Shown piece after piece: positions 346 through 30,270 of a stretch of 64,000 nt of DNA (its first letter is position 1; each line of letters starts with the position of its first letter). The stretch comes from Vibrio breoganii. GTDB taxonomy: Bacteria; Pseudomonadota; Gammaproteobacteria; Enterobacterales; Vibrionaceae. The translations under genes and the position numbers were made by a program. The stretch spans positions 310,001 through 374,000 of the forward strand of contig NZ_CP016178.1 of assembly GCF_001677275.1 (NCBI RefSeq), written 5' to 3'. The notes under the pieces were generated by a model, which was not told the origin of the DNA, did no database searches, and was given only the letters and a program-made list of their open reading frames with translations.

Positions 346-375
346 CTAAGATCCTGAATCAAGTTCAGGATGACG
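346..375 (+). repeat. REP-like hairpin repeat, copy 1
   Basis: CTAAGATCCTGAA, loop TCAAG, then TTCAGGATGACGG. The arms CCTGAA/TTCAGG (353-358 and 364-369) pair perfectly. The same frame (CTAAGATCCTGA-loop-TCAGGATGACRG) recurs at 5358-5391 and, inverted, at 5479-5507. A diverged copy lies at 502-541. Confidence 0.7.
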
Positions 376-5357: not shown

Positions 5358-5391
5358 CTAAGATCCTGACTTTCGTCAGGATGACAGGGTC
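5358..5391 (+). repeat. REP-like hairpin repeat, copy 3
   Basis: CTAAGATCCTGAC-TTTC-GTCAGGATGACAGG: arms CCTGAC (5365-5370) and GTCAGG (5375-5380) pair perfectly. It lies just after the SBF-like gene and faces the inverted copy at 5479-5507. Confidence 0.75.
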
Positions 5392-18787: not shown

Positions 18788-18942
18788 GATCACCTCAAAA
18801 CAATAGAATAAGTAATGTTAAATATTTGTTTAGTTGAATGGTTCATGAGGTAGAATAGACGAGTAAACAATTAAAAGTCCAGTTAAAACCGTAACATAGG
18901 GTTGTTACATTCTTGCATACATTCATACGAAAAGGATTTCAT

Positions 18943-20118
18943 GTGGTAAAAGGAATTTATTACCCGTGGTTGGCAAGCACTTTAGCTCTATTGAGTTGTC
19001 CATCATTAGCGGTAGAACCACTCTTCCCAACACCTGCTGATGCAGAGCCCACCTTTGTTGATAAAGCATTTGATTTTGTGGGTGCCGATGGTGGGTTTGA
19101 CCCTGATAAAGGGGTGGATATGAGTTATATCCCGTCAGTGTTTTATAATCCAGAACAAGAGTTTGGTGGGGGAGCTTTGATTATAGGGCTTTACAAAACC
19201 GACTCCGCAATGGATTTTGAACAGCCTTCCTCTTTTGTCGTTAACGCCTATGTATCAACCAACCTATCCGTAGGGGTGACGTTTGATAACATTACCTTCC
19301 TCAATAACGGAAACAACCGCTTCGAGATTGATGCAGAAATTCATGACGAGCCCGTTGTGTATTATGGACGAGGCTATGACTCTACCAGCGTTGATGATAA
19401 CAAGGTGCTGTATACGGAAACCTTAGTGACACTAACCCCACGTTGGTATCACCGTATGGCAGACAACTGGTTTGTTGGTTTAGGGGGTAATATCACCTAC
19501 GTTGATACTCGAGACCCTGAAGTGGGTGATGAGGTGAATAACGGTGGTAACCCGATCCTATTCAATGATTTAGAATCGAACACGTCTGCCGGCGGCTTTG
19601 TTACCTTGCTATACGATAGCCGAAACTATGTCGAAAACACCGAAAGAGGAACGCTACTCCAGGCTGACTTTGGCGCCTATTACAGCGACCTCAATTCAGA
19701 TTCGTTTGGTAAGTATGATATTGAACTTGCTCACTTCATTGATCTAGAGCCGGTACCAGGCGTGTTGGCACTGCAAGGCCAAGGCAAGTTCACATCTGGC
19801 GATGTACCTTGGAATCGACTCCCTGATCTGGGGGGAGCGTATTCAATGCGTGGCTACATACTAGGACGACATCGTGATGAACAGATGGCCATGGTACAGG
19901 CGGAGTATCGACTGCCCATTTATCGCCGCTGGGGGAGCGTTTTCTGGGCCGGTGTAGGCTCCATAGGCGAAGATGTTGATCAACTAAGTGATGATGTACT
20001 AACCACCTATGGTTTGGGGCTACGTTATCGCTTGAAGGGACGGATTAACTTGAGGGCTGATCTAGGGTTTGGTGAGGACGAAACCTTATTCTATTTCAAT
20101 GTAAACGAAGTCTTCTAG
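18943..20118 (+). CDS. Omp85/BamA-type outer-membrane beta-barrel protein
   Basis: 391 residues from a GTG at 18943, chosen because AAAGGA lies at the right distance and the signal peptide (VVKGIYYPWLASTLALLSCPSLA) then starts cleanly; a TTG at 18913 is an alternative. No POTRA domains are seen. The C-terminal half is a D15/Omp85 barrel with the hallmark loop-6 motif as MRGYILGRHRD (about 304-314) and YRLPIYRRWGSVFWAGVG. Such short Omp85-like barrels are common in Vibrio; substrate or partner unknown. Confidence 0.85.
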   Translation: MVKGIYYPWLASTLALLSCPSLAVEPLFPTPADAEPTFVDKAFDFVGADGGFDPDKGVDMSYIPSVFYNPEQEFGGGALIIGLYKTDSAMDFEQPSSFVVNAYVSTNLSVGVTFDNITFLNNGNNRFEIDAEIHDEPVVYYGRGYDSTSVDDNKVLYTETLVTLTPRWYHRMADNWFVGLGGNITYVDTRDPEVGDEVNNGGNPILFNDLESNTSAGGFVTLLYDSRNYVENTERGTLLQADFGAYYSDLNSDSFGKYDIELAHFIDLEPVPGVLALQGQGKFTSGDVPWNRLPDLGGAYSMRGYILGRHRDEQMAMVQAEYRLPIYRRWGSVFWAGVGSIGEDVDQLSDDVLTTYGLGLRYRLKGRINLRADLGFGEDETLFYFNVNEVF

Positions 20119-20140
20119 CCGGTAGCTATCTATTACTATT

Positions 20141-20193
20141 AAAAAAGCGACAGTACCTCTCTTTATTACTGAGAGGGAGGCTGTCGCTTTTTA
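20141..20193. terminator. Terminator after the Omp85-type gene
   Basis: AAAAAGCGACAG...CTGTCGCTTTTT with an inner CCTCTC/GAGAGG pairing makes a long stem ending in a T-run. Symmetric A/T tracts let it also serve the minus-strand small ORF at 20217-20366. Confidence 0.85.
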
Positions 20194-20216
20194 TTTAGGT
20201 GTAAGCAAAATAGAAA

Positions 20217-20366
20217 TTAAAAGAAGTGGCCTAACCCGTGCAGTGAAGAAATAAGACTTGGCAGTGCAATTAAGCCAATTTTTACCGCAACAATAATGGC
20301 AATAAGACGTCCAATTTTGTGTGTAGTTGCTTTGTTTATCTCATCTGCATGCTGACTGTATATCAT
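20217..20366 (-). CDS. Small predicted membrane protein, 49 residues
   Basis: ATG at 20366 with ATGAGGTAC (GAGG core) eight bases upstream; TAA at 20217-20219. The protein begins MIYSQHADEINKATTHKIGR, continues with one hydrophobic helix (about 21-41, LIAIIVAVKIGLIALPSLI) and ends HGLGHFF. Codon use and RBS look genuine, and it ends right at the shared terminator. Family not recognised; possibly a small inner-membrane peptide. Confidence 0.6.
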   Translation of the reverse strand: MIYSQHADEINKATTHKIGRLIAIIVAVKIGLIALPSLISSLHGLGHFF

Positions 20367-20544
20367 GCGAGTACCTCATGAGTGAATGAATATAGGGCTA
20401 ACTTACTCTCAATCATGGTCAAAAAAAGTGCACATTGTGAAAAGTTTGAACTGCATCTAGGAGGTGGTTCGGTTCTATGATGTCGACCACATAATGGAAT
20501 ATGAGTGCAATTTCATGGGTTATGAGTGAGGTTTCAGGGATTTT

Positions 20545-20594
20545 AGCTGTCAGCTGTCAGCTGTCAGCGACAAGCGACAAGCGACAAGCCACAA
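20545..20594 (+). repeat. Two abutting 7-bp tandem repeats
   Basis: Three exact AGCTGTC heptamers (20545-20565) run into three GCGACAA heptamers (20567-20587) and one variant GCCACAA (20588-20594). They lie just left of the 115-bp array. Confidence 0.9.
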
Positions 20595-20810
20595 GTTACC
20601 AAGCCTGAGATGCCCCGCTAACGACATGCGGGAATGACGTGGAGTATTTGATGTGTATATCGTCACAGGTATACCGTCATTGCCGAAGTCTTTTATCGGC
20701 AATCTTTCTGTTTGTGTGTTCTAAAATTCCCACTCACGGGGTAATCCCCCCAAAAAGTAACAGCATGAAAAAGTAGAATTTTCTCGTATAGTTAATACAG
20801 GAGATTCAAC

Positions 20811-21077
20811 ATGAAAAAATCACGATACACGGACAGTCAGATCCTCTCGATCTTAAAACATGCAGAAGCGGGAACCCCGATCCCAGAGCTTTGCCGAGAG
20901 CATGGTATGAGCAGCGCAACCTTCTATAAGTGGCGCTCAAAATACGGAGGTATGGACGCTTCCCTTATGGCTCGAATGAAAGAGCTTGAAGATGAAAATC
21001 GTCGCCTTAAAAAGATGTACGCGGAAGAGCGCTTAAAAGCCGAAGTCATATCTGAAGCCATGGCAAAAAAGTGGTGA
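20811..21077 (+). CDS. IS3-family transposase subunit OrfA
   Basis: 88 residues, with GGAG upstream of the ATG. The N-terminus [20 protein letters not shown] starts a helix-turn-helix ('[24 protein letters not shown]') followed by a leucine-zipper-like helix ([19 protein letters not shown]), the OrfA layout of the IS407 group. It ends with A_AAA_AAG (21065-21071) just before its TGA, where a -1 frameshift would give the OrfAB transposase. Confidence 0.93.
21065..21071 (+). promoter_or_regulatory. Programmed -1 frameshift site of the IS
   Basis: A_AAA_AAG in the OrfA reading frame, two codons before the OrfA stop, with OrfB open in the -1 frame. This is the classic IS3-family slippery heptamer. 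Confidence 0.85.
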
Positions 21078-21889
21078 AGCCCTGTGAGCGTCGCAAGATG
21101 GCTCAGCACTCGGTGGCGAACAACACAATTAGCATACGACAGGCTTGCCGTTGGTTTAGTGTCAGTGAGACTTGCTATCGGTATCAATCAAAAGGGCAAC
21201 CTGAGAATGAACAGATAGCTCAGTTGCTTACTGAGTTGGCCGAAGACGAGTCTGACTGGGGTTTTGGATTGTGCTTTAACTATCTTCGCAATGTTAAGGG
21301 GCATACTTGGAATCACAAGCGGGTCTATCGCATATACTGCGAACTGGCTCTAAATCTGCGTATCCGTCCGCGAAGACGACTAAATCGTAATGTACCAGAG
21401 CCACTAAAAGACCCGATCAAGCCGAATCAAGTTTGGTCTATTGATTTTATGCACGATCAACTTTCCGATGGACGTAATTACCGCCTGTTTAATGTCATTG
21501 ATGACTTTAAGCGTGAAGGATTAGCTATCGAAGCTGATTTCTCTTTACCAGCAGAAAGAGTTGTTAGGGCTCTAGAGCAGATAATCGAGCAACGAGAACA
21601 GCCTATCGCCATTCGCTGTGATAATGGGCCGGAGTTTATCAGCGGTCATTTTATTGAATGGGCTAAAAATCGAGGTATTCGTATTGACTATATACAGCCA
21701 GGTAATCCTCAGCAAAATGCTTATGTTGAGCGTTTCAACCGAACCGTCCGATTTAGTTGGGTAAGCAAGTATCTATTTGATTCGATAGCGGAAGTACAAG
21801 ATAAAGCAACTCGTTGGCTTTGGTTCTACAACCATGAACGCCCACACAAAGCGAATGGAGGGCATCCACCACTGAAAATAGCCGCATAA
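21071..21889 (+). CDS. IS3-family transposase subunit OrfB (DDE integrase core)
   Basis: 272 residues in the -1 frame relative to OrfA. The rve/DDE catalytic domain has D in WSIDFMHDQ (about 119), D in IRCDNGPEF (about 180) and E in NAYVERFNR (about 217), with FNHERPH-like [11 protein letters not shown] near the end. All three acidic residues are present, so the enzyme may be active. It is normally made as an OrfAB fusion by frameshifting at 21065-21071. Confidence 0.93.
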
Positions 21890-22416
21890 ATTCTACGAAC
21901 AAGTGCCGTTATTAATGGGAGGATTACCACGGCATGTGAGAATGACGTGGCGTATTTCGTGTGTAGACTGTTAACGGTATTCCGTCATTGCCGAGGTCTC
22001 TTATCGGCAATCTTTAGGTTTGTGCGCACCAAGATTCCCGCTAACAACATGCGGGAATGACGTGGCGTATTTTGTGTGTAGATCGTCACCGGTATTTCGT
22101 CATTGCCGAAGTCTTTTATCGGCAATCTTTCTGTTTGTGTGTTCTAAAATTCCCACTCACGGCATGTGAGAATGACGTGGCGTATTTCGTGTGTAGACTG
22201 TTAACGGTATTCCGTCATTGCCGAGGTCTCTTATCGGCAATCTTTATGTTTGTGCGCTCTAAGATTCCCGCTAACAACATGCGGGAATGACGGGGCGTAT
22301 TTTGTGTGTAGATCGTCACCGGTATTTCGTCATTGCCGAGGTCTCTTATCGGCAATCTTCATGTTTGTGCGTTCTAAGATTCCCGCTAACGGCATGCGGG
22401 AATGACGATATTCTTT

Positions 22417-22454
22417 CCCAGAACCCAGAACCCAGAACCCAGAACCCAAAACCC
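22417..22454 (+). repeat. 7-bp tandem repeat right of the array
   Basis: CCCA followed by four exact GAACCCA heptamers and one AAACCCA variant, 11 bases after the last array junction. Confidence 0.9.
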
Positions 22455-22460
22455 ACGCAT

Positions 22461-22492
22461 AAAAAAAGCTCGATGCATTCAACATCGAGCTT
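22461..22492 (-). terminator. Terminator of the nap operon
   Basis: Minus-strand stem AAGCTCGATG-TTGAATG-CATCGAGCTT followed by seven T's (A-run 22461-22467 on the plus strand), 27 bases after the last small gene. Confidence 0.88.
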
Positions 22493-22518
22493 AATCAGTA
22501 ACCGAATACAACCTCGGT

Positions 22519-22659
22519 TTAGCTTGTTTCTTCTTTATCGGCTGTGATTGAAAGTAGCCAGATACAGATAGCGGCAACTGCTGCAAAACCACCTATGATA
22601 ATCACTGGCATAGCGCTATAACCCAATACGTGCCAGATGATGGATTCTAATTGACTCAT
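22519..22659 (-). CDS. Small nap-associated membrane protein (TIGR02808-type)
   Basis: 46 residues: ATG at 22659 with AAGGGAGAG upstream, TAA at 22519-22521. The protein starts MSQLESIIWHVLGYSAMPVI, followed by a hydrophobic helix (about 18-38) and the tail TADKEETS. This matches the short TIGR02808 family I know from Vibrio and Shewanella nap regions. It follows napC by 9 bases and precedes the operon terminator, so it belongs to the nap transcript. Function unknown; a small partner of NapC is possible. Confidence 0.8.
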   Translation of the reverse strand: MSQLESIIWHVLGYSAMPVIIIGGFAAVAAICIWLLSITADKEETS

Positions 22660-22668
22660 AACTCTCCC

Positions 22669-23241
22669 TTACCAACCTTCAATGCCGTGCATATCTGGCA
22701 ATTTGTGTGCAATACCTTTGTGACAATCTACACAGGTTTTGTCACCTGAAGCGAGTGCAGTTGAGTGTTGTTTAACACTGCGGTCACCCTGCTCAGAGAA
22801 GTCCATATAATCAAACTCGTGACAGTTACGACACTCTAGGGAGTCGTTAGCTTTTAGACGAGCCCACTCACGTTCTGCCAAGTGGCCACGACGAGCTTTG
22901 AATTTCTCTTCTGTATCGATAGTACCAATGATGTGCGCAAACACCTCTTTGGATGCCTGAACTTTACGAATTATCTTATCAGTCCACTCATGTGGTACGT
23001 GACAGTCTGAACAGATTGCTCGTACACCGGAGCGGTTTGAGTAGTGGATAGTCTCTTGTATCTCTTGCACGATAGGCTCATGACATCCAGCACAAAACTC
23101 TTCGGTGTTGGTGTATTCCATCCCGGTATTGAATGCGCCCCAGAATAGAAGACCACCAGCAAACCCCATGAAAAGAACGATGCCTGCGGCAGCCTTACTT
23201 GGAGTTTTTAGTCTCTTCCAAAACGCTAGTAAAAATTTCAT
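22669..23241 (-). CDS. napC: Tetraheme c-type cytochrome NapC
   Basis: 190 residues of the NapC/NirT family. One N-terminal membrane anchor (about 17-38) is followed by four CxxCH heme sites: CAGCH (about 50), CSDCH (about 78), CRNCH (about 137) and CVDCH (about 171). It takes electrons from membrane quinol and passes them to NapB-NapA in the periplasm. Fourth gene of napFDABC. Confidence 0.95.
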
Positions 23242-23273
23242 AAATAGCCTCTTATGTTAACGACTAGTAAAGG

Positions 23274-23828
23274 TTATTGAAGTGAATCAACAGGTTTAAA
23301 TTCGTTCTCTACCAGTGGTTTTGCATTTGCTTGCGGTACGTGACATTGCAAGCAGAAGTAACGGCGTGGAGATACGTCGGCCAATACAGCATCTTCACGG
23401 TTTACATAGTGAGTAACACTCACCTTGGTAGCGCCCATTTCACTAGCATTTTTCCAGCTGTGACATGCAAGACACTTGTTTGCATTTAATGAAACTTCAT
23501 ACCCTCGAATGTTATGAGGGATCAATGGTGGCTGGTAAACATAGTCACTTGTAATGACTTGCTCACGAGGGTACTTTTTGAAGGAATCCGCAGCGCGAGT
23601 TGCTTCTAATTCGCTAACACCACGCAATGATTCAACACCACCAATACCGCCAGGATTGTGCAGTTCAGCTTGCTCAACGCCCGCGTTCTCTGCCTTCTCC
23701 ATATCGGTTTGCTCTAGCATTGCATCATCCATATCCGGTTTTGCATTGCTAACACCTTCAACGTCCGCCTGAACAATACCTGCGGCAATAGCACTTATTG
23801 ATAACAGAGCAATCAACAGCTTTTTCAT
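23274..23828 (-). CDS. napB: Diheme cytochrome NapB, electron-transfer subunit of nitrate reductase
   Basis: 184 residues with a signal peptide (MKKLLIALLSISAIAAGIVQA). Two heme motifs, CLACH (about 118) and CLQCH (about 156), and the NapB segment PPLIPHNIRGYEVSLNANKC. It is longer than the usual roughly 150 residues because of an acidic stretch after the signal peptide (about 25-65, PDMDDAMLEQTDMEKAENAG). Periplasmic partner of NapA. Confidence 0.95.
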   Translation of the reverse strand: MKKLLIALLSISAIAAGIVQADVEGVSNAKPDMDDAMLEQTDMEKAENAGVEQAELHNPGGIGGVESLRGVSELEATRAADSFKKYPREQVITSDYVYQPPLIPHNIRGYEVSLNANKCLACHSWKNASEMGATKVSVTHYVNREDAVLADVSPRRYFCLQCHVPQANAKPLVENEFKPVDSLQ

Positions 23829-29987: not shown

Positions 29988-30060
29988 CTAGGTTCTCCTT
30001 GAAATAATAATTGGAACTTAGTAAACCTAGTTGTGCTCTGAGAGTGTGGCAAGGACTTAT

Positions 30061-30095
30061 AGCTGAAAGCTGTCAGCCATAAGCTTTCAGTTGAA
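30061..30095 (+). repeat. Degenerate AGCTxxx heptad repeat, copy A
   Basis: Reads in sevens as AGCTGAA, AGCTGTC, AGCCATA, AGCTTTC, AGTTGAA. It shares AGCTGTC with the exact tandem repeat at 20545 and is almost identical to 30234-30265. The ends also pair (CTGAAAGCT / AGCTTTCAG). Confidence 0.7.
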
Positions 30096-30233
30096 AATCA
30101 AAAGCTGGTGGCGTTTGAGCTTTTTTCCATTGCACGGTTGCAGCCAGATCTCCGATAGGAGCGCTCGGAGATGACAGGGTCAAATCTGGTTATTCCCGAA
30201 GTGTTTTCTGGGCCAGCCAAATCTCAATCTGAC

Positions 30234-30265
30234 GACTGAAAGCTGTCAGCTATAAGCTTTCAGTT
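30234..30265 (+). repeat. Degenerate AGCTxxx heptad repeat, copy B
   Basis: ACTGAA, AGCTGTC, AGCTATA, AGCTTTC, AGTTAAT: the same heptad string as 30061-30095 with two changes. Its inverted arms CTGAAAGCT/AGCTTTCAG may form a hairpin upstream of the terminator. Confidence 0.7.
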
Positions 30266-30270
30266 AATAT

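What the first reader, a model, noticed from the sequence alone, without database searches (positions are those of the whole stretch)
20613..22406. 115-bp tandem array of alternating hairpins with base-paired covariation
The sequence shows five units at an exact 115-bp period once the IS is removed. Two unit types alternate. In one the junction hairpin is TTCCCGC...GCGGGAA, in the other CTCAC...GTGAG replaces part of the stem with matching changes in both arms. A second hairpin (ATTGCCGA...TCGGCAAT) is kept in all units. Paired changes imply that the fold, at the RNA or single-strand DNA level, is what is kept. An exact period with a 230-bp supercycle suggests repeated duplication of a dimer. 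The junction motif ATTCCC...GGGAAT resembles the Neisseria dRS3 repeat in shape only.
Basis: partly seen in the sequence, partly recalled or inferred. Interest (0 to 1): 0.62.

Follow-up and report, generated by a model that had tools for sequence, protein, structure and literature searches.

The report
Tandem array of mobile hairpin repeats
A stretch between two genes of a marine Vibrio is a tandem cluster of paired DNA hairpins belonging to a repeat family scattered over its chromosomes; the hairpin shape seems to be what lets the family spread, and other mobile DNA uses such hairpins as landing sites.

Summary
Observation largely confirmed; interpretation enlarged. Five 115-bp units (20640-22407) hold two inverted hairpins each; unit 1 is split by an IS3-family element (20740-21928). 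The hairpins are CGTC-tagged REPs (CGTC, 8-bp stem, 9-nt loop, CT tail) in head-to-head dimers. Units are 87-89% identical within a species, 74% between. Pairing covaries strongly even when sites are picked without using it; 12 of 15 perfectly paired arm types occur at several loci, 1 of 22 imperfect ones. So spread probably needs the hairpin; local selection on this array is not shown. V. inusitatus and V. superstes have many copies but no detected Y1 (RAYT-type) gene. Unexpectedly, 20 of 23 IS110-family copies in six genomes sit inside CGTC hairpins; the 8 of V. superstes use the array's own 9-nt-loop type. The dRS3 likeness is kinship within a described superfamily. New variant of a known kind.

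The parts
20541..20596 (.). heptanucleotide runs (AGCTGTC, GACAAGC) just outside the left edge of the array
20609..20639 (-). leading half unit: one decayed CGTC hairpin (right-hand REP type)
   Evidence: sequence; covariance-model match 29.8 bits
20640..20739 (.). unit 1, left part: spacer, left-hand REP (20675-20705), inner spacer and first half of right-hand hairpin, cut by the IS
20675..20705 (+). left-hand CGTC REP: CGTC ATTGCCGA N9 TCGGCAAT CT
20740..21928 (+). IS3-family insertion sequence, 1189 bp, terminal inverted repeats GGTAATCCYCCC; target duplication ACGG at 20736-20739 and 21929-21932; sits in the hairpin loop; not shown to be specific for REPs (1 of 4 genome copies)
20811..21077 (+). 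IS3 orfA (HTH_Tnp_1)
21071..21889 (+). IS3 orfB (rve integrase core)
21933..21947 (.). unit 1, right part: second half of the CTCAC/GTGAG hairpin and its tag
21948..22062 (.). unit 2 (115 bp): REP + at 21983-22013, REP - at 22032-22062
22063..22177 (.). unit 3 (115 bp, CTCAC/GTGAG hairpin variant): REP + at 22098-22128, REP - at 22147-22177
22178..22292 (.). unit 4 (115 bp): REP + at 22213-22243, REP - at 22262-22292
22293..22407 (.). unit 5 (115 bp, hybrid of the two types): REP + at 22328-22358, REP - at 22377-22407
22415..22455 (.). heptanucleotide run (CCCAGAA) just outside the right edge
22466..22492 (-). terminator-like hairpin after the nap genes, so the array lies beyond it
   Evidence: consensus match only; 5 such sites found in the region, 2.0 expected from shuffles
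30146..30176 (-). second long-loop REP of the window (TGTC ATCTCCGA GCGCTCCTA TCGGAGAT CT), also flanked by AGCT heptamers
351..375 (-). short-loop (5-nt) CGTC REP: CGTC ATCCTGAA CTTGA TTCAGGAT
5363..5386 (-). short-loop (4-nt) CGTC-type REP: TGTC ATCCTGAC GAAA GTCAGGAT

Best explanation
The array is a tandem cluster of head-to-head dimers of a long-loop (9-nt) subfamily of CGTC-tagged REP elements. SHOWN: the same hairpins are dispersed over the two large contigs of this Vibrio and occur on the large contigs of two named relatives; dimers have a near-constant span (about 78-80 bp), here and elsewhere; an array at the same place exists in V. inusitatus; copies within a species are more alike than between species; arm pairing covaries. 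INFERRED: an old dimer landed between the nap genes and an outer-membrane-protein gene, was multiplied with its flanking spacer by unequal exchange or replication slippage (last by duplication of a 230-bp two-unit block), and is homogenised by the same process. New loci arise mainly from hairpin-competent copies, so a single-strand or cruciform hairpin is probably the form that the unknown copying machinery handles. The array probably has no dedicated function for the neighbouring genes, but is a place where insertion sequences can land and repeat number can change.
For: Array and register. Copies elsewhere: 27 BLAST matches, 4 of them the array itself; 150 model matches, 146 at E below 0.001, the number scored being capped at 150; 75 exact pattern matches against 0 for the reversed control. 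Dimers: 38 head-to-head neighbours, 27 of them with a span of 78 or 80 bp, against 36 tail-to-tail and 21 same-direction. Orthologous array. Concerted evolution: own-own 88.7%, V. inusitatus 87.2%, between 74.0%. Covariation on sites chosen by tag, loop end and tail only: 163 of 203 with all six inner pairs Watson-Crick against 42.9 expected when arms are re-dealt. Hairpin-dependent spread: 12 of 15 perfect arm types at more than one locus, 1 of 22 imperfect (Fisher p 2.8e-6). Family: Di Nocera 2013 passages.
Against: Imperfect arm types are mostly private point mutations, so part of the 12/15 versus 1/22 contrast is simply age. Covariation in a dispersed family does not show selection at this site. 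No strand preference of one-sided changes (G.T versus A.C on the tag strand 20:17 and 13:15), so which strand folds is not resolved. The enzyme that copies the elements is unknown. The heptamer runs at the edges are not explained. Unit U3 folds poorly on the + strand. The 9-nt loop and CT tail differ from the described CGTC families.
Confidence: 0.78

Rival explanations
1. A one-off local duplication with chance hairpins and no selection on structure.
For: The local 230-bp duplication looks recent (94% matches at period 230; best own-own unit identity 97.4%); unit 3 does not fold better than shuffles on the + strand.
Against: Dispersed copies, other arrays, orthologous array in another species, and covariation over 15 perfect arm types.
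Confidence: 0.04
2. The array works as RNA: a 3' stabiliser, attenuator or small RNA of the nap operon or of the 49-aa gene at 20217-20366.
For: Hairpins fold better than shuffles as RNA in three of four units tested on the + strand (z -1.2 to -2.3); REPs are thought to act as RNA elements in other bacteria (PMC3733652 abstract).
Against: A terminator-like hairpin lies between the nap genes and the array; no such hairpin passes the rule at this place in three relatives and only two do in V. superstes, while the flanking genes stay; no Rfam match above its family's gathering score.
Confidence: 0.1
3. The array is a protein-binding site cluster, like the E. coli BIMEs that bind DNA gyrase or IHF (recalled), and is kept for chromosome topology.
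For: Alternating inverted REPs in tandem, the arrangement of BIMEs (start of the abstract of PMC2817692 in the listing).
Against: No binding motif was tested; presence varies among relatives.
Confidence: 0.12
4. IS110-family (bridge-RNA/seekRNA) recombinases, which insert into such hairpins, also drive the recombination that spreads or multiplies them.
For: 20 of 23 IS110-family copies in six genomes lie inside CGTC hairpins.
Against: V. inusitatus has 134 pattern matches, but the only IS110 type found there with PF02371 (2 copies) does not sit in REPs; IS110 insertion splits the REP, and I see no way in which it would copy it.
Confidence: 0.07

Closest known systems
CGTC-tagged REP superfamily, families CGTC-1 to CGTC-4 (Di Nocera et al. 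2013, PMC3733652; includes Neisseria dRS3 as CGTC-1)
   Same: Unpaired CGTC/TGTC tag, 8-bp stem starting with AT, head-to-head dimers, here of unlike partners (heterodimers), no RAYT linked
   Different: Loop of 9 nt, not 4-5; tail CT, not CCA; tandem clusters at several loci, which that paper calls rare for CGTC except in Neisseria and Wolbachia. 'vibrio' as a word does not occur in its main text, but its figures, which list the species, and its supplements were not seen. IS110 insertions here, where that paper reports only a few fortuitous transposase associations
Neisseria dRS3 / NIME arrays (PMC3898611, passages)
   Same: ATTCCC...GGGAAT core, hundreds of copies, intergenic arrays of 200-2700 bp, landing site for mobile DNA (a filamentous phage)
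   Different: Loop length and dimer layout; here a constant 115-bp period and no RS-type repeats seen between the hairpins
REPINs/BIMEs with RAYT transposases (PMC3116915, PMC2817692; start of abstract in the listing only)
   Same: Inverted REP doublets, tandem BIME-like reiteration
   Different: GTAG-type tag absent; no Y1 transposase gene found beside these REPs, and no Y1_Tnp match at all in two genomes rich in them
REP-targeting IS110/IS1111 elements such as IS621, ISPa11, ISPpu9, ISPpu10, ISRm19 (PMC1525189, PMC11208160, PMC11187229; passages)
   Same: IS110-family elements at a fixed point in a REP hairpin
   Different: Targets here are CGTC hairpins of Vibrio; the IS types use two different points of the hairpin (stem/tag border, or inside the 3' arm)
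IS3-family REP-targeting elements (IS1397, ISKpn1, ISPsy8; PMC1525189 passages)
   Same: IS3-family element inside a REP
   Different: The IS3 element in the array is in a REP in only 1 of 4 copies, so no targeting is shown

Membership tests
CGTC-tagged REP superfamily | palindrome with an unpaired CGTC (or TGTC) tag at one end | tested here: met
   9 of 9 intact hairpins of the array carry CGTC; 57 CGTC and 11 TGTC among 68 monomers collected by a rule that required C or T there
CGTC-tagged REP superfamily | 8-9-bp stem with A-T pairs at the first two positions | tested here: met
   8-bp stem in all nine (one with a wobble pair); first pair A-T in 47 of 54 and second T-A in 53 of 54 distinct monomers (rows chosen for RT at the stem start and at least 7 of 8 pairs, so biased)
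CGTC-tagged REP families CGTC-1 to CGTC-4 | loop of 4-5 nt and tail mostly fitting CCA | tested here: not met
   9-nt loop (the collecting rule fixed it at 9), tail CT in 61 of 68 monomers; in the array itself 9 of 9 have 9-nt loops (which allowed 4-13). Short-loop members do occur elsewhere in the window. Hence treated as a separate, long-loop family
CGTC-tagged REP superfamily | predominantly head-to-head dimers | tested here: met
   38 HH, 36 TT, 21 HT neighbours within 250 bp; the TT count is that high because dimers lie in tandem
REPIN/RAYT system | a RAYT (Y1_Tnp) gene flanked by the REPs in the genome | tested here: not met
   8 Y1_Tnp loci of this genome, only one model match, 13.6 bits, E 0.07; no Y1_Tnp match in V. 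inusitatus, V. superstes or G107, 1 in G083, 4 in G102
REPIN/RAYT system | GTAG-type tag | tested here: not met
   tag is CGTC
BIME | inverted REPs in regular alternation in tandem | tested here: met
   likeness in layout only, since the E. coli REP sequence that defines BIMEs was not searched for
REP-targeting IS110 | IS110-family recombinase (PF01548 + PF02371) and insertion at one fixed point of a REP | tested here: met
   own 360/357-aa type 9 of 9, V. superstes 341-aa type 8 of 8, one G083 copy (read by eye), 348-aa type 2 of 2 with both ends readable; 366-aa type of V. inusitatus 0 of 2; both Pfam domains in one protein of each of the 360-, 341-, 348- and 366-aa types
REP-targeting IS110 | guide RNA loops matching the REP target | tested here: inconclusive
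   best matches in the longer non-coding region are 7-8 nt, p about 0.08-0.21 each

The most novel reading that the evidence does not exclude
A long-loop lineage of CGTC REPs spreads in Vibrio by a mechanism that requires the hairpin but no Y1/RAYT transposase, so a class of hairpin-dependent DNA copying without its known enzyme is at work; IS110-family RNA-guided elements have independently adopted CGTC hairpins as a common landing site.
Probability: 0.3. Interest if true: 0.72.

Novelty: new variant of a known kind. Interest (0 to 1): 0.5.

Why it matters
CGTC REPs are described as apparently lacking a dedicated transposase, and whether they are still being formed is left open in the paper that defined them (PMC3733652, abstract). 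This Vibrio group offers related genomes with many, few or almost no copies, an array with an orthologue of different length, and evidence that mainly hairpin-competent copies found new loci. That makes the question testable by comparing strains. The IS110 link adds a set of natural target sites for RNA-guided recombinases.

Tried and rejected
Rfam: three matches over 19500-23500, none above its family's gathering score. RAYT linkage: none found. IS3 element as a REP-specific IS: not supported, 1 of 4 copies in a REP. Strand test for a one-strand fold: no bias, and with inverted dimers the test has little power. First pattern for a genome census had a wrong spacer length and found nothing; replaced. 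Guide-RNA matches in the IS110 non-coding regions: not significant. Alignment A1 rows were chosen for at least 7 of 8 pairs, so its 98.6% paired cells are biased; two searches were made to avoid this (still drops sites with fewer than 4 of 6 inner Watson-Crick pairs). Dropped rows: from 68 monomers, one non-REP and those with a GAC tail were left out and duplicates merged, leaving 54; unit 1 was left out of the unit comparison because the IS cuts it. Some single pattern hits in other genomes do not look like REPs.

Full report
1. What is in the sequence. Window 20640-22407 holds five 115-bp units in exact register once the insertion sequence is set aside, preceded by half a unit at 20609-20639. 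Tandem Repeats Finder gives period 115 (4.1 copies right of the IS, 85% matches) and period 230 (2.1 copies, 94%). The step across the IS is 1423 bp, that is 1189 bp of IS, 4 bp of target duplication and 230 bp. The IS (20740-21928) has two ORFs with HTH_Tnp_1 and rve domains, ends GGTAATCC, and the duplication ACGG; it sits in the 9-nt loop of a hairpin of unit 1. Four copies (100% in the listing) exist in the genome; the loci of the other three show no match to the REP model.

2. Anatomy. Each unit is: spacer of about 35 bp, hairpin L on the + strand (CGTC ATTGCCGA, 9-nt loop, TCGGCAAT CT), spacer, hairpin R on the - strand (CGTC ATTCCCGC, 9-nt loop, GCGGGAAT CT). Tags point outward, so each unit is a head-to-head dimer. 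Hairpin L is perfect in 5 of 5 units. Hairpin R has two types. Units 1 and 3 differ in the stem from 2, 4 and 5 by one compensated pair and one one-sided change that pairs (G.U) only when the - strand is read. Alternation holds for units 1 to 4; unit 5 is a hybrid.

3. Copies elsewhere in the genome. BLAST with 230 bp finds 27 matches, 4 of them the array itself. A covariance model built from 54 distinct 32-nt monomers gives 150 matches, 146 of them at E below 0.001; only 150 of 2102 first-look candidates were scored, so the census is capped. None of the 150 is on contig 3. They include other arrays with periods of 108 bp (C2:40117-40796), 117-122 bp (C1:879031-879827), 122-129 bp (C2:397038-397564) and 117 bp (C2:1294051 onward). 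In 54 loci of this genome (51 with a monomer by the rule used), neighbours within 250 bp are 38 head-to-head (27 with a span of 78 or 80 bp), 36 tail-to-tail and 21 same-direction.

4. Other species. The pattern GTCATNNCCR N11 YGGNNATCT gives 75 matches here, 134 in G144, 186 in G220, 4 in G083, 2 in G102, 1 in G107; of the other 221 of 227 genus genomes 6 have one match and 215 none; the reversed control never exceeds 2 in a genome. An exact hairpin L pattern in the named genome collection hits only V. superstes JCM 21480 and V. inusitatus LMG 23434, 18 stretches (records very near the window's own genome may be left out there). The 230-bp query itself matches 3 of 148 sampled genus genomes. 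In 394 sampled genomes of the order, 57 have a GTCATTCCCG...CGGGAAT hairpin; most places in the (incomplete) listing have 4-nt loops, but those listed for G408 and G556, of another family, have 9-nt loops with one exception, and four of G408 are spaced 115-116 bp.

5. The same place in relatives. The outer-membrane-protein gene and napC flank this region in all six genomes compared. V. inusitatus has an array (TRF period 116, 10.2 copies, 88% matches) with homologous spacers and no IS; V. superstes has two hairpins that pass the rule, plus remnants by eye; G107, G083 and G102 have none of this type. A tree from 5.8 kb of nap and sensor-kinase genes, rooted on G083 and G102, pairs G107 with V. 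inusitatus and puts V. superstes first of the four, so loss in G107 is the simpler story, from one linked region only; the raw identities are not fully tree-like (own-V. superstes 91.5%, own-G107 91.2%, V. inusitatus-G107 89.8%). Units are 88.7% identical within this genome (6 comparisons), 87.2% within V. inusitatus (45), and 74.0% between them (40): concerted evolution.

6. Is the fold kept? Alignment A1 shows 7 of 8 pairs with double changes and 66 such cells against 18.8 in shuffles, but its rows were chosen for pairing. Choosing sites by tag, loop end and tail alone gives 203 sites (loci of this genome and relatives fetched by then), of which 163 have all six inner pairs Watson-Crick against 42.9 when 3' arms are re-dealt. 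In this genome alone (151 monomers, 51 of 54 loci) there are 15 perfect arm types, 12 of them at more than one locus, and 22 imperfect types, 1 at more than one locus. I read this as spread from hairpin-competent copies followed by decay of single arms. It does not show selection on this array. One-sided changes show no strand preference (20:17 and 13:15).

7. What moves them? Eight Y1_Tnp matches exist in this genome, with only one 13.6-bit match to the REP model in their loci. V. inusitatus and V. superstes (each given as 99% complete) have no Y1_Tnp match, yet many REPs; REP-poor G107 has none either, G083 has 1 and G102 has 4. A resident RAYT is therefore not needed for their persistence. 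This agrees with the statement of Di Nocera et al. [quoted passage not shown]

8. IS110 elements land in CGTC hairpins. Of 23 PF02371 matches in the six genomes, 20 have both junctions inside a CGTC-type hairpin: 9 of 9 of the 360/357-aa type of this genome, 8 of 8 of the 341-aa type of V. superstes, 1 in G083 and 2 of the 348-aa type (for the G083 copy L235 the hairpin was read by eye, because the script's window was too short for its 15-nt loop and scored only 4). One more (L243) was readable at one end only and looks the same; the two V. inusitatus copies are not in a hairpin. Apart from L235 the empty-site hairpins have 6 to 8 Watson-Crick pairs of 8. The type of this genome mostly uses another class of CGTC hairpin: 8 of 9 have 15-17-nt loops that are themselves largely self-complementary, 1 (L247) a 9-nt loop. 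The 8 V. superstes copies lie at the stem/tag border of the 9-nt-loop type; L250 and L254 have exactly the arms and the ATGTTGTTA loop of hairpin R of units 2 and 4, and L244 differs from it by one base. L250 and L254 have similar flanks, so not every copy need be an independent insertion. One protein of each type carries DEDD_Tnp_IS110 and Transposase_20. IS110-family elements in REPs are known (IS621, ISPa11, ISPpu9 and others; PMC1525189, PMC11208160, PMC11187229, passages). I found no paper on CGTC REPs of Vibrio in the listings, nor on IS110 in them, within the open-licence library searched. The guide-RNA match was not significant.

9. Setting. The array lies on the nap side beyond a terminator-like hairpin at 22466-22492, and upstream of a conserved 49-aa reading frame on the - strand at 20217-20366. 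Heptanucleotide runs lie just outside both edges. Around REPs of this genome, self-match at a shift of 7 bp is 0.28-0.31 within 150 bp and 0.247-0.250 beyond 250 bp; this is the largest change of the shifts 4 to 11, with a smaller rise at 11 and a fall at 6, as expected outside genes.

10. Verdict. The array is real and is a clustered form of a long-loop family of CGTC-tagged REPs, a new variant of a known kind. Its most interesting aspects are hairpin-dependent spread without a detected Y1 transposase and the use of such hairpins as IS110 landing sites.

Noticed in passing
L242, L245, L247, L249, L251, L253, L255, L256, L257, L239 (this genome); L236, L240, L244, L246, L248, L250, L252, L254 (V. 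superstes); L235 (G083), L238 (G102): IS110-family elements inserted inside CGTC hairpins, 20 of 23 copies in six genomes
   Followed up: yes
20541-20596, 22415-22455, 30241; L193-L234: AGCTnnn and other heptanucleotide runs beside REPs; 349 pattern matches in the genome against 6 for the reversed control; enriched near REPs but also found alone
   Followed up: partly
30060-30270: A long-loop REP flanked on both sides by near-identical CTGAAAGCTGTCAGC...AGCTTTCAG sequences, recalling the palindromes around H. neapolitanus CGTC dimers in PMC3733652
   Followed up: no
18913-20118: The outer-membrane-protein gene of G107 is only 82.8% identical although its napC is 98.9%, which hints at allele exchange with a breakpoint near the array site
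   Followed up: no
20217-20366 and 22519-22659, - strand: Small conserved reading frames of 49 and 46 aa flanking the array site; the 46-aa one found in 6 of 6 genomes with slightly varying length, the 49-aa one in 5 of 6 by my filter
   Followed up: no
G408 and G556 (another family of the order): CGTC-type hairpins, mostly with 9-nt loops; four of G408 lie 115-116 bp apart
   Followed up: no
L047, L048: Y1 transposase genes next to a TnpB-like reading frame (IS200/IS605 type, by eye) with no CGTC REP beside them
   Followed up: partly
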